DNA from: Chloroflexus sp. Y-396-1
Lineage (GTDB): Bacteria > Chloroflexota > Chloroflexia > Chloroflexales > Chloroflexaceae
Assembly: GCF_000516515.1 (NCBI RefSeq)
Contig: NZ_KI911784.1
Span: 558,001 to 622,000, forward strand
Direction of reading: 5' to 3'
DNA: 64,000 bases
In this document: piece by piece, positions 37,994 through 42,211 of the stretch
How positions within the stretch are numbered: position 1 is the first letter of the stretch
Layout of the letters: every line of letters begins with the position of its first letter
Made by a program: the position numbers and the translations under genes
Notes under the pieces: model-generated
The model's database searches: none
What the model was told of the DNA's origin: nothing
What the model saw: only the letters and a program-made list of their open reading frames with translations

Positions 37994-38437
37994 TTACTTC
38001 AGGGTACGTAAGTAAGCCATCAAATCGGCCATTTGCTGGTCGGTAAGGTCGTGGGGTGGCATGTAGCCAATCCGACCGGTACCACCGACACGAATCCATT
38101 CGGCGATATTGGCTTCACTGCGCTCTTTACCGTTAGGCAATAGTCCTTTGTAATCAACCCCTTTCGGCAATACCGGACCTTCGGCACTAAACAAACCGGC
38201 CAATCCTGGCCCCACCAGGACTTCTTTCGTTGTTGTATGACAGGCAGTACACTGACCGAAGACTTCTTTCCCTTTCTGGACATCACCTTTGGCCGAGATC
38301 GAAGTATCACGGAGCGCTGCCGGCAGTTCGTTGGCTGATGCCGAGGTTGATGACGAAGTGGCCTGATTACCACCACCGCAGCCAGTGATGACAGCGATTA
38401 GAAACAGGGTAAACAGCCATGCACTCAAACGGTTCAT
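37994..38437 (-). CDS. Lipoprotein cytochrome c (mono-heme)
   Basis: The 147-residue protein has a lipoprotein signal (LFLIAVITGC, lipidated Cys20) and a low-complexity Ser/Thr linker. Next comes a class I cytochrome c domain with CTACH at about residues 64-68 (heme attachment) and a likely Met ligand in GRIGYMPPHDLTDQQMADLM. It would be anchored to the outer face of the membrane and carry electrons, possibly alongside a heme-copper oxidase or photosynthetic electron transfer. AAGGAGG precedes the start. There is no neighbour that names its partner; the next minus-strand gene upstream may be a small membrane protein. Confidence 0.88.
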   Translation of the reverse strand: MNRLSAWLFTLFLIAVITGCGGGNQATSSSTSASANELPAALRDTSISAKGDVQKGKEVFGQCTACHTTTKEVLVGPGLAGLFSAEGPVLPKGVDYKGLLPNGKERSEANIAEWIRVGGTGRIGYMPPHDLTDQQMADLMAYLRTLK

Positions 38438-38512
38438 TGGTGTCCTCCTTATTCACTTGAACGCACCTATCCCAAAGAAAGACCGACAACGTCTAAGTCA
38501 GGGTTTAAACAA

Positions 38513-38938
38513 TCAAGCAGTCTGGAAAAGCGGGAGGGTGCGCGGTGGCGGTGTTGGAGGATCACAGGAGAGTCTGGGTAAAAGTGAGGGGGAAGACAGA
38601 TGAAACAGCAGTATCACAACGATGATCACAAGAGCAGTCATTTGCACTGGTGGCAGCGTTTCAAAAACCGCCCGTGGTCGCACTGTTTCGATAGGCGACG
38701 ATGTCGGCAACTCGTGCTCAGGTATTGCAGATGATGATGGAGCATCGCAGAGAAAAATGCTGGTCTGACCATGCTCACGCAGGAGGTCGTGAAAGAAACA
38801 ATGTAAGACACAGCTCAGCGGGCTAAGTAACCCTAGCTCGATCACAACCAGAACGGCGAGGGTGTGAATCCCCCGTTCACCCAGTCGGTATAATTGCCGA
38901 AACCTGCGGCCTTTGTGCGATATCGTGCCATTTTTCAC
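38513..38938 (-). CDS. Possible small membrane protein
   Basis: The frame carries two clear hydrophobic segments (TLAVLVVIELGLLSPLSCVL and MTALVIIVVILLFHLSSPSL). A Cys/His-containing stretch (SCVLHCFFHDLL ... IFLCD) lies between them, and the C-terminus is Pro-rich. This hydrophobic pattern is unlikely to be chance, though no family is recognised; the Cys/His spacing loosely recalls DUF2946-type metal-related proteins. The start is uncertain: GTG at 38938 is used because the frame upstream looks non-coding, but no ribosome-binding site supports it. It ends 75 bases before the cytochrome c gene. Confidence 0.45.
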   Translation of the reverse strand: MKNGTISHKGRRFRQLYRLGERGIHTLAVLVVIELGLLSPLSCVLHCFFHDLLREHGQTSIFLCDAPSSSAIPEHELPTSSPIETVRPRAVFETLPPVQMTALVIIVVILLFHLSSPSLLPRLSCDPPTPPPRTLPLFQTA

Positions 38939-39717
38939 GCTTTTATGATGCGACAGGGAAGGTCGTTTGTCAAGCACTGAGGGGAATGGCTCCTGGAGAT
39001 GAACGTTAACCTGGATCACCATCTGATCGATCATTGTTGTCAGTAACAATTGCAGAGTCTGTACCGGCTTATACCACTTCTGGTATGAAGAACCAGCTCT
39101 CATCGTGCCACCCGCCTGCCCCACCGCTTCCATGCGTTCACACCGTTCCGTTCGTCGACGCAGGAGGGTGGGTGCACGAAACCTCCAGACGCAGTCCGAA
39201 TGGGCCGTAGCGCCACTCCGCGCCATGCGGTGAAGGGAGAGGCCAATCAGGGATGATTGTCGCCGTACCGTTCTGCGAGAAACACGACGGTGCTGGAGAA
39301 ACGCTGGCCGCCGATCTGCCCCATCGTGGTAGTTGCCACCTGCCACGGCCACTGTGAGACCAAACGATGCGATACATCCCTATCCCCACAGTGGCGGCGG
39401 AACGACAGACGCGGGTGGTATGGTCACAGTGGTACTATGCCCTACCAGGCGGCACCATGCTCTACAGGTCGGCTATCAGGTTCCATTCAGCGCTGGCAGG
39501 TAGTATATTTCTTCTATATAATGTGCTGGTACGAGAAGAGTACGAGATATGGAGGAAGGTTTAAGGTAGGGAAGGAGGTTTCGCCATCATCGCCCTCTGG
39601 CATGCCGGCGTCTCGCTCTTGCAGAATATCCGCCGGGAGGATGCGTTCGCCCCTGTTCCCGTGCTGTTCAAATCCTAACGACTCACCTTGCCACTCGCTG
39701 CTCACAAGGAGGAATAC
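38939..39717. other. Gene-free region before the decayed ATPase gene
   Basis: No gene is supported. A TATAAT box occurs at 39517-39522, about 200 bases before the ruined start codon of the DUF499-like gene, and may be its old promoter. Short frames on both strands have no recognisable content. Confidence 0.4.
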
Positions 39718-41072
39718 ACGGCCATCACCAACTAGGAACGGATCGGGAAAGCGCTCGAACTGCTGCGTCAGGGGCTACAACCCTTCATCGAGCGTGAGTT
39801 GCAGAATCACTACGGCAAATATTGGGTGACGGAAGTTACCAGTACCTGGCGCAATGAGCTGACCTGGCGTGACGATGATACCCCTCACCTCGATACTGCG
39901 GCGCTCCTGAAGATCATGTGGGAGCAGTGGAATGAGGTGTTTCGGAAGACCCTGGGATTCACCGAACGTAGTCTGTTCAGTGAGCTCCGCGAGTGGCGCA
40001 ACAAATGGGCACACCAGGAGTCGTTCTCAACCGATGATACCTACCGGGCACTTGACTCAGCAGGCCGATTGCTTGTGGCAGTTTCCGCCGCGGCGCAGGA
40101 TGATGAGATAGAACGAATGAAGTTCGATCTGCTGCGGGTTCGGTTTGACGAGCAGGTGCGGAGCGAGAAACGGAAGGCAGGCGGCTCGCTGATCGAGGCT
40201 GCGGCCAGTGGGATGCTGAAGCCCTGGCGCGAGGTCGTGACACCGCATCCCGATGTGGCCAGCGGACGCTACCAGCAGGCCGAGTTTGCTGCCGATCTGT
40301 GGCAGGTGCATCTCGGTGAAGGGAGTGACGAGTATCGCGATCCGATCGAGTTTTTCCGTCGTACCTATCTCACCGAGAGCCTGAAGCGACTCCTGGTGAG
40401 TGCCGTCAAGCGACTCACGGGCAAGGACGGCGATCCGGTGGTGCAGTTGCAGACCAACTTCGGCGGCGGGAAGACCCACTCGATGCTGGCGCTGTATTAT
40501 CTCTTTTCTGGGTATCGTCCTGCGGATTTGCCCGGCGTGGATACGGTGCTCACCGAGGCCGGTGTGACGGAGATTCCAACGGTACGGCGGGTGGTGTTGG
40601 TCGGCAATAAACTATCGCCCGGTAACCCAACGGTCAAACCCGATGGAACGGTCGTGCGGACTCTGTGGGGGGAGCTGGCCTATCAACTTGGCGGCAACGA
40701 TGCCTATGCCCGGATTGCGCACGACGACGAACGCGCCACCAACCCCGGCGACCGGTTGCGTGAGTTGTTCAACGCCTATGGCCCGTGTCTCATCCTGATT
40801 GACGAATGGGTGGCGTATGCTCGCCAGCTCCACGACCAGAGCGACCTGCCCGGAGGAAGTTTCGAGACGCAGTTCACCTTTGCGCAGGCGCTGAACGAGT
40901 CGGCAAAACTGGCGAGTCGCTGTTTGCTGGTCATCTCGTTACCGGCCTCCGATACTGCAACCTCCTCACCGGCCGATGATGTGGAAGTCGGTGGGATTCG
41001 TGGTCGTGAAGCGCTGAATCGGCTGCGGAACGTTGTCGGGCGTGTCGAGTCGTCGTGGCGTCCGGAATCGGC
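39718..41072 (+). pseudogene. Decayed DUF499-type ATPase with Swt1-like HEPN N-terminus
   Basis: The protein starts (in the ancestor) TAITN-x-ERIGKALELLRQGLQ, a Swt1-family HEPN-like beginning. It continues with EFAADLWQVHLGEGSDEYRD and FFRRTYLTESLKRLL, a P-loop (QLQTNFGGGKTHSMLALYYL), ERATNPGDRLRELFNAYGPC, LILIDEWVAYARQL (Walker B) and GREALNRLRNVVGRVESSWR. DUF499 ATPases of roughly 1000 residues occur in defence islands with DUF1156 methyltransferases and helicases. Here AAGGAGG is followed by ACG where ATG is expected (39718). Codon 6 is TAG (39733-39735) where CAG is expected. The gene is cut after about 450 codons by REP repeats. No methyltransferase or helicase partner remains. Confidence 0.8.
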
Positions 41073-41500
41073 ACCCCTCACCTTCCCCCCCAGCCCCCCT
41101 TCCTCTCCCGCGCTGCGGGAGAGGAAGGGGGGAGGTGCCCCCCTCACCTTCCCCCCAGCCCGCTGCCGCTCCCACGCTGCGGGAGAGGAAGGGGGGGAGG
41201 TGCTCCCTTACCTTACCCCCATAGCCTCCTTCCGCTCTCATACGGGGAGAGAAAGGGGGAGTTGAGCGTAGGAGTGGCGCTCCTGCGTCTTTAACGATAC
41301 CGAGTTCACGAACCAGATCACCCCTCTCCCGCAGCGCGGCAGCGGGGCCGGGGGTGAGGAGCACCCCTCTCCCGCAGCGCGGCAGCGGGGCTGGGGGTGA
41401 GGGCCGCCCGCAGCGCGGCAGCGGGGCCGGGGGTGAGGGCCTCCCGCAGCGCAGGAGCGGGAAACCAAGGCCGGTTGGGAACCCGCCCTTCCCCTCACTC
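41073..41500. repeat. REP-type repeat island truncating the ATPase gene
   Basis: Several copies of the CTCCCGCGCTGCGGGAG-type palindrome with CCCTCACCTTCCCCCCAGCC flanks occur in both orientations. The module GTGGCGCTCCTGCGTCTTTA ... ACGATACCGAGTTCACGAACC ... AGATCACCCC (about 41275-41325) also occurs, inverted, at 58.2-58.7 kb. A GGTTGGGAACCCGCC motif is at about 41473-41488. No gene is present. Confidence 0.75.
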
Positions 41501-41557
41501 CTCTTCTCCCTTACCGCCCGTCGTCTCCTTACACCGCCGAACATCGCAGAAAAGATG

Positions 41558-42211
41558 CTACGGCAGCCACTGTTCCAGCCGATACGCACTATCCCAGAAC
41601 ATCCACTCCAGGCGTGATGAATAGATAAAGGCATCGCGCATGCGCTGTTGTTGAGTCGCCGAGACCTGTTCGGCGATACTGTCGGTCAACGTAATTGCCT
41701 GCTTGACGACCTCATCAAATTCTTGTCCGGCGTAGGTGTCGATCCACTTCTGATAGGGGTTGTTGGGGGCTGCTCGACGGTAGATGTCATGACCGACTTC
41801 CCAATAGATCCAGAAACAGGGTAGGAGTGCCGCCATCCCTTCTTCATAACTACGAGTAGCTACGGTAGCCAGTAAGAAATTGGTATACGCAAAGCATGCT
41901 GGTGCTTGTTGGCGGGTTGGAGTATCGATCCCAAATTCGCGGAAATAGGTGTTATGCAACGAACGTTCGACAACCGCTACCCCTTCAGCAAAGTGAACAA
42001 ACTGAAGGATCGCAGCTTCGTCGGGTGATCGTCCGGCCATTGTTGCTAGCGCTCGCGCAAAATCAGCCAGGTAGAGCGCGTCTTGCTGCATGTAGAAGGC
42101 GAATTTCTCGCGTGGGAGTGTACCCTGGGCCAACTCTTCATTGAAGGGGTGCTGAATAATCGCCTTGTAAATGTCGGTAATCGATTCCCAAAGTGTTTCG
42201 GTGAAACGCAT
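41558..42211 (-). CDS. tenA: TenA aminopyrimidine aminohydrolase / thiaminase II
   Basis: The 217-residue helical protein matches TenA: FNEELAQGTLPREKFAFYMQ, QDALYLADFARALA, and LLPCFWIYWEVG with the catalytic Cys. NPYQKWIDTYAGQEF and the C-terminal RLEWMFWDSAY carrying the Glu-Tyr pair complete the match. It hydrolyses aminomethyl-aminopyrimidine from degraded thiamine to HMP. The start at 42211 has AGGGAGG 7-8 bases upstream; the in-frame codon at 42265 is not supported. A TPP riboswitch and a TTGACA/TATATT promoter lie upstream, so it is repressed when TPP is plentiful. No terminator is seen between riboswitch and start, so control may be at translation. Confidence 0.93.
   Translation of the reverse strand: MRFTETLWESITDIYKAIIQHPFNEELAQGTLPREKFAFYMQQDALYLADFARALATMAGRSPDEAAILQFVHFAEGVAVVERSLHNTYFREFGIDTPTRQQAPACFAYTNFLLATVATRSYEEGMAALLPCFWIYWEVGHDIYRRAAPNNPYQKWIDTYAGQEFDEVVKQAITLTDSIAEQVSATQQQRMRDAFIYSSRLEWMFWDSAYRLEQWLP

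What the first reader, a model, noticed from the sequence alone, without database searches (positions are those of the whole stretch)
39718..41072. Fossil of a defence-type ATPase: start codon and a Gln codon lost by C/T changes, then cut by REP DNA
A good ribosome-binding site leads into ACG instead of ATG, codon 6 is TAG where the family context predicts CAG, and the gene stops at a REP island half-way. The remaining 400+ codons are otherwise clean, including Walker A and B. So the decay is recent, and the organism once had a DUF499-type system.
Basis: partly seen in the sequence, partly recalled or inferred. Interest (0 to 1): 0.6.

Follow-up and report, generated by a model that had tools for sequence, protein, structure and literature searches.

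The report
Broken antiviral ATPase gene in Chloroflexus
This stretch is the front 40% of a broken gene from a known bacterial antivirus system (Hma); its start signal and one early codon are mutated and its back half is gone, so it is an ordinary gene fossil rather than a new kind of system.

Summary
Window 39718-41065 is the 5' part (about 450 of 1,100 codons) of hmaC, the Swt1-HEPN + DUF499 ATPase of the Hma (Type-1 BREX-related) defence system. In 89 of 89 related loci examined the codon that is ACG here is a start codon (87 ATG, 1 GTG, 1 TTG) and codon 6 is not a stop; the three nearest read CAG there. Homology ends at about 41065, where a dispersed REP-like repeat begins; 74 of 77 relatives not cut by a contig end encode 1,098-1,180 residues. 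No hmaB match and no hmaA-grade match was found in the genome, while a relative in the same genus keeps hmaA-hmaB-cargo-hmaC. The remaining codons still look constrained, so the loss is recent relative to divergence. Not shown: that REP DNA caused the cut, or that this lineage ever held the full system; the fragment lies at a synteny break and its nearest kin are in another family. Ordinary as a fossil. A better lead lies in intact relatives: an often-filled cargo slot between hmaB and hmaC, in two loci holding a Cas10-RAMP-CARF/HEPN cassette.

The parts
39706..39713 (+). ribosome-binding-site-like AAGGAGGA; 39691-39713 shares 22 of 23 nt with the G042 relative
39718..39720 (+). ACG where 89 of 89 loci have a start codon (87 ATG, 1 GTG, 1 TTG)
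39733..39735 (+). TAG at codon 6; CAG in the three nearest relatives, not a stop in any of 89 loci
39718..41065 (+). 5' fragment (about 450 codons) of hmaC, pseudogene
39748..40086 (+). Swt1-like HEPN domain (PF18731), with RNKWAH (Rx4H) at 39997-40014
   Evidence: motif read
40213..41064 (+). part of the AAA+ region matching PADLOC HmaC positions 2-277 of 941; Walker A 40462-40479, Walker B 40789-40806
41066..41500 (.). REP-like repeat island (64-nt and 43/36-nt palindromic units) at the truncation point; dispersed over the genome
38633..38986 (.). last piece of the left block with translated similarity to the cytochrome c neighbourhood of five genus members
41558..42202 (-). TENA/THI-4 family gene, first gene of the right syntenic block

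Best explanation
A decayed, truncated copy of hmaC. Hma (Type-1 BR) is a three-gene restriction-like phage defence: a DUF1156 DNA methylase marks self, a SNF2-type helicase(-nuclease) attacks unmarked DNA, and the HEPN-DUF499 ATPase is thought to assemble the scanning complex and, through its HEPN RNase, to shut the cell down as a last resort (published proposal, not tested here). In this genome only the first 40% of hmaC remains. The start codon and a Gln codon are lost by one transition each, the rest is missing from about 41065, and a REP-like repeat island fills the break. Shown: homology, lost start, in-frame stop, truncation at the repeat, no hmaB match and no hmaA-grade match in the genome, constrained-looking remaining codons. 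Inferred: that it makes no functional protein; the order of events (likely truncation or loss of partners first, point changes later under no selection); that the repeats took part in the deletion; that an intact system was once resident.
For: HEPN_Swt1 139.6 bits, DUF499 43.3 bits; HmaC 414.3 bits. Start codon at the same place in 89 of 89 loci, no stop at codon 6 in 89 of 89, CAG in the three nearest. Full length in 74 of 77 frames not cut by a contig end. Homology ends where the dispersed repeat begins. No hmaB match in the genome, and the HmaC profile finds only this fragment and one separate scrap; hmaA only as helicase hits of at most 127 bits, a profile that rings in 14 of 14 control genomes, against 1,580 bits in G003. 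hmaA-hmaB-cargo-hmaC in G003 of the same genus. Pairwise dN/dS (NG86) with the two nearest is 0.08 and 0.09, like that pair itself (0.10).
Against: A 488-aa frame from TTG 39799 stays open, so a shortened product cannot be excluded by sequence alone. N/S on the fragment's side does not differ from the intact G003 side (9/42 against 16/67, p = 1.0), so there is no positive signal of relaxed selection beyond the disabling changes; against the two nearest lineages together it is higher, not significantly (9/42 against 3/49, p = 0.07; 7/42 without start and stop codon, p = 0.19). Leaning the other way: three of 114 otherwise invariant sites differ, joint second highest of 90 rows, one of them at the junction, and its end branch (0.12) is five times those of its two nearest relatives though like G003's 0.11.
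Confidence: 0.93

Rival explanations
1. The gene reached this site already broken (by transfer or rearrangement), so this lineage never ran a full Hma system; the pseudogene is real but the 'organism once had the system' step is wrong.
For: No hmaB match and no hmaA-grade match in the genome. Nearest relatives are in another family (G042, G054; 89-90% protein identity, 84-85% at DNA level), not in the genus (G003, 83% and 79%). GC3 is 0.70 against 0.51-0.61 for six neighbouring genes. The fragment lies between two blocks that are not linked in the genus stretches fetched.
Against: DNA shared with G042 begins at 39691, 27 nt before the start, and covers the ribosome-binding site, so a normal gene start was present. 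HmaC frames of full length occur in four other genomes of the genus, so resident systems are common there.
Confidence: 0.3
2. A shortened HEPN-ATPase protein is still made from TTG 39799 or another start, with a tail coded by the repeat, and has some use.
For: The frame is open for 488 codons; HEPN RNKWAH and both Walker motifs are intact; changes look constrained.
Against: In 89 of 89 loci the start codon lies 27 codons earlier; the shortened form lacks the first part of the HEPN domain (the domain match begins 17 codons upstream of the TTG) and about 60% of the protein; partners not found.
Confidence: 0.05
3. Sequencing or assembly error.
For: Two single-base disabling changes close together.
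Against: Single-contig genome of 4,890,986 bases, 99.98% complete; a third, independent defect (loss of the 3' part at a repeat) cannot come from base errors.
Confidence: 0.02

Closest known systems
Hma system, HmaC (PADLOC; PMC8565338, passages read)
   Same: HmaC profile matched from its first positions; the same-genus relative has HmaA, HmaB and HmaC in order.
   Different: Only the first 40% is left; start lost, early stop, no partners found.
Type-1 DUF499-centred BREX-related (BR) system, HEPN-fused variant (PMC12839542, passages read)
   Same: N-terminal HEPN fused to a DUF499 ATPase, as that paper reports for 1,370 taxa.
   Different: What follows the ATPase core is missing (the paper describes wHTH and RRM-like parts there).
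HEPN-DUF499 (Ava_2192 type) of PMC3710099 (passages read)
   Same: Swt1-like HEPN fused to the AAA+ domain called DUF499.
   Different: The fossil is truncated and without R-M neighbours.
NCBIfam NF042962, anti-phage DUF499 protein
   Same: Weak match in the ATPase part (69.5 bits).
   Different: Far under the curated cut-off of 1,200 bits; not a member by that test, though a truncated protein could hardly reach it.

Membership tests
HmaC / HEPN-fused Type-1 BR ATPase | N-terminal Swt1-like HEPN domain | tested here: met
   PF18731 139.6 bits, profile 1-115 of 115
HmaC / HEPN-fused Type-1 BR ATPase | HmaC/DUF499 AAA+ ATPase with Walker A and B | tested here: met
   HmaC 414.3 bits, positions 2-277 of 941; motifs
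HmaC / HEPN-fused Type-1 BR ATPase | full length about 1,100 residues with C-terminal part | tested here: not met
   homology ends at about 41065; relatives 1,098-1,180 aa in 74 of 77 uncut frames
HmaC / HEPN-fused Type-1 BR ATPase | translatable start at the conserved place | tested here: not met
   ACG, then TAG at codon 6
Hma system | adjacent HmaB (DUF1156 methylase) | tested here: not met
   no match at E 0.001 in the whole genome; only chance-level matches in 38401-41700
Hma system | adjacent HmaA helicase | tested here: not met
   only helicase matches of at most 127 bits far away; only chance-level matches in 38401-41700
Hma system | anti-phage activity | not testable with these tools
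   needs experiments
NCBIfam NF042962 anti-phage DUF499 | score over the curated cut-off | tested here: not met
   69.5 bits against 1,200; intact relatives were not scored with this model

The most novel reading that the evidence does not exclude
The fossil comes from a family of Hma operons whose hmaB-hmaC junction is a cargo slot for exchangeable effector modules. In two phyla the slot holds a whole Cas10-RAMP-CARF/HEPN cassette, with no CRISPR array seen in the stretches checked, which may be a type III-like signalling module slaved to the Hma ATPase/methylase.
Probability: 0.3. Interest if true: 0.6.

Novelty: new member of a known kind. Interest (0 to 1): 0.2.

Why it matters
As a fossil it is one more case of gain and loss of defence operons in Chloroflexia: of eight genomes of the genus (this one included), HmaC frames of full length are seen in four, a fossil in this one and no match in three. 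It also settles how to name the frame (hmaC pseudogene) so that it is not counted as an active system. The side finding in intact relatives (cargo between hmaB and hmaC, with a Cas10 module in two loci) would matter more: it would tie Hma to nucleotide-signal-type effectors and is directly testable.

Tried and rejected
Looked for the missing 3' part of hmaC and for partners elsewhere in the genome: the HmaC profile found only this fragment and a separate 56-position piece at G000:C1:891915; HmaB had no match. Looked for remnants of HmaA, HmaB, HEC-03, Cas10, RAMP and CARF proteins in window 38401-41700: only chance-level matches (best E 0.45) apart from hmaC itself. Looked for the empty site: the left block (to about 38986) and the right block (from 41559) are each syntenic with genus members but in different places, so no clean empty site was found. 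Considered TTG 39799 as the true start and rejected it. Considered relaxed selection as positive proof of decay: not demonstrated. The careful tree did not finish; the quick tree was used. Structure prediction and fold search were not used.

Full report
What is there. Window 39718-41265 holds one frame that is open apart from a TAG at codon 6, with ACG at its conserved start. The translation from codon 7 matches Swt1-like HEPN (PF18731, 139.6 bits, whole profile) and DUF499 (43.3 bits) and PADLOC HmaC (414.3 bits, positions 2-277 of 941). It is far below the cut-off of NCBIfam NF042962 (69.5 against 1,200 bits).

Comparison with relatives. Among 61 genomes (own included), 29 have a match. The best are G054 and G042 (91 and 90% identity, another family of the same order), then G003 (84%, same genus). 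A capped scan of named genomes gave 579 confirmed relatives, of which the best 80 were kept, from many phyla. The ACG-equivalent codon is a start codon in 89 of 89 (87 ATG, 1 GTG, 1 TTG) and codon 6 is a sense codon in 89 of 89 (CAG in 18). The three nearest read ATG...CAG. Against these, both disabling changes are transitions, T to C and C to T.

Truncation. Twelve of the 89 frames run into a contig end; of the other 77, 74 are 1,098-1,180 residues long and three are shorter (L067, L085, L113; not examined). The fossil follows its relatives up to TGGCGTCCGG (41056-41065) and then departs. From 41071-41074 on the DNA is a palindromic repeat island (64-nt and 43/36-nt units). A search with 41060-41500 reported 205 matches in the genome, itself, both strands and overlaps included, 40 of 197 candidate places scored. 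The repeat marks the break; that it caused it is not shown. No clear copy of this repeat was found in the stretches around the G003, G042 and G054 operons.

Partners. In G003, same genus, HmaA (1,580 bits; the frame is cut by the end of the stretch), HmaB with DUF1156 (1,498 bits), two HEC-03 genes and HmaC (1,144 bits) stand in a row. In the window's genome HmaB has no match at E 0.001. HmaA gives only helicase hits (best 127 bits; that profile also rings in 14 of 14 control genomes). The HmaC profile, which rings in 1 of 14 controls, finds only the fossil and a 56-position piece at 891915.

Setting. The left block is shared with the cytochrome c neighbourhood of five genus members (DNA level, where one of the five, G002, shows only the neighbouring gene; to about 38986 by translated comparison). 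The right block, from 41559, matches the TENA neighbourhood of G003 as far as 57665, and TENA alone in G004 and G006. The two are not linked in the stretches fetched. The DNA 38440-39717 has no match at E 0.001 in the seven other genus genomes; one search finds a 54-nt piece of it at 80% in the G005 stretch. The fossil thus lies at a synteny break. GC3 of the fragment is 0.70, against 0.51-0.61 for six neighbouring genes, 0.80 for G042/G054 and 0.75 for G003. Transfer between families is likely.

Timing. At codons identical in the three comparison sequences the fossil has 42 synonymous and 9 nonsynonymous private changes (the 9 include start and stop); G003, unpolarised, has 67 and 16; the two nearest lineages with their common branch have 49 and 3. 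Under neutrality about 36 of 51 would be nonsynonymous. The share of the lineage that evolved neutrally has an upper bound of 18% or 35%, depending on the intact yardstick. These counts are rough. Two hints of looser constraint: 3 of 114 otherwise invariant sites differ, and the end branch is 0.12 against 0.02 for the two nearest, though 0.11 for G003. 'Recent' is therefore relative.

How the intact system is thought to work. PMC12839542 (passages read) describes Type-1 BR, which it equates with Hma: methylase for self-marking, helicase-nuclease for attack, DUF499 ATPase as assembling and sensing part, HEPN as last-resort RNase. It credits PMC3710099 (passages) with first noting the HEPN-DUF499 fusion. 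PMC8565338 (passages) named Hma and reports it in 26 phyla. None of this function was tested here.

Side lead. In 77 of 89 loci an HmaB match precedes hmaC; the spacer is under 150 nt in 38, 150-599 nt in 7 and at least 600 nt in 32 (L039/L046, both in the last group, are one record). Some long spacers hold no clear gene, and the loci were chosen for likeness to the fossil. Ten cargo proteins that I picked from eight of the 32 loci gave Schlafen AlbA_2, AAA with PHP, AAA_21, zeta toxin, nucleotidyltransferase, DUF4143 and DuOB domains, in keeping with the auxiliary effectors of PMC12839542 (passages). Two loci, L036 (G054) and L088 (a Myxococcota MAG), hold Cas10, three RAMP-type genes and a CARF/HEPN gene, 46-70% identical between the two, directly between hmaB and hmaC (family profiles were run for L036 only). 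Both Cas10 frames keep GGDD (motif name recalled). A search for direct repeats found none in 10000-21338 of L088 and three short families of 2-4 copies in 17000-19217 of L036, not array-like; the rest of those genomes was not searched for arrays. Of 400 Chloroflexota genomes, 2 have this Cas10 at E 1e-20; the second (G018) is on a 5.6-kb contig with no hma match, so the link is not universal. Papers holding both 'Cas10' and 'DUF1156': none in the library; one search listed three papers for wider terms; 'Cas10' and 'RAMP' do not occur in the main text of PMC12839542. Other wording was not searched.

Verdict. Ordinary as a finding; the cargo slot of the intact relatives is the better lead.

Noticed in passing
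L036:6489-15661 and L088:845-9983: A Cas10 (GGDD kept), three RAMP-type proteins and a CARF/HEPN protein sit directly between hmaB and hmaC in a Chloroflexota and a Myxococcota genome; no CRISPR array seen in the stretches checked.
   Followed up: partly
77 loci among L034-L122 with hmaB upstream of hmaC: The hmaB-hmaC spacer is two-peaked: under 150 nt in 38, at least 600 nt in 32, 7 between; cargo includes Schlafen AlbA_2, PHP-AAA, zeta-toxin and nucleotidyltransferase genes.
   Followed up: partly
L135:6868-7077 (G000:C1:891867-892076): A second, separate HmaC-like scrap of about 70 codons (40% identical) in the same genome; near it a gene that looks like a REP-associated (Y1-type) transposase and another transposase-like frame (labels recalled, not tested by profile).
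   Followed up: partly
L035:7025-12293 (G042): In one of the two nearest relatives hmaC is full length but hmaB is a 464-codon frame matching the end of HmaB, and no hmaA match was found in the 19-kb stretch, so that operon also looks decayed.
   Followed up: partly
G012:C46:35594, G051:C111:5154, G048:C23:1425: Three other genomes of the order give HmaC-like matches with a stop inside, two of them very short and weak, so loss of this gene may recur.
   Followed up: no
window 38987-41558: Synteny break: the left block follows several genus members, the right block follows G003, and the two are unlinked in the stretches fetched.
   Followed up: partly
literature on HmaB: HmaB is called an m5C methyltransferase in PMC8565338 (passage) but an adenine methylase in PADLOC-DB's description and an N6-methyltransferase in PMC12839542 (passage).
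   Followed up: no
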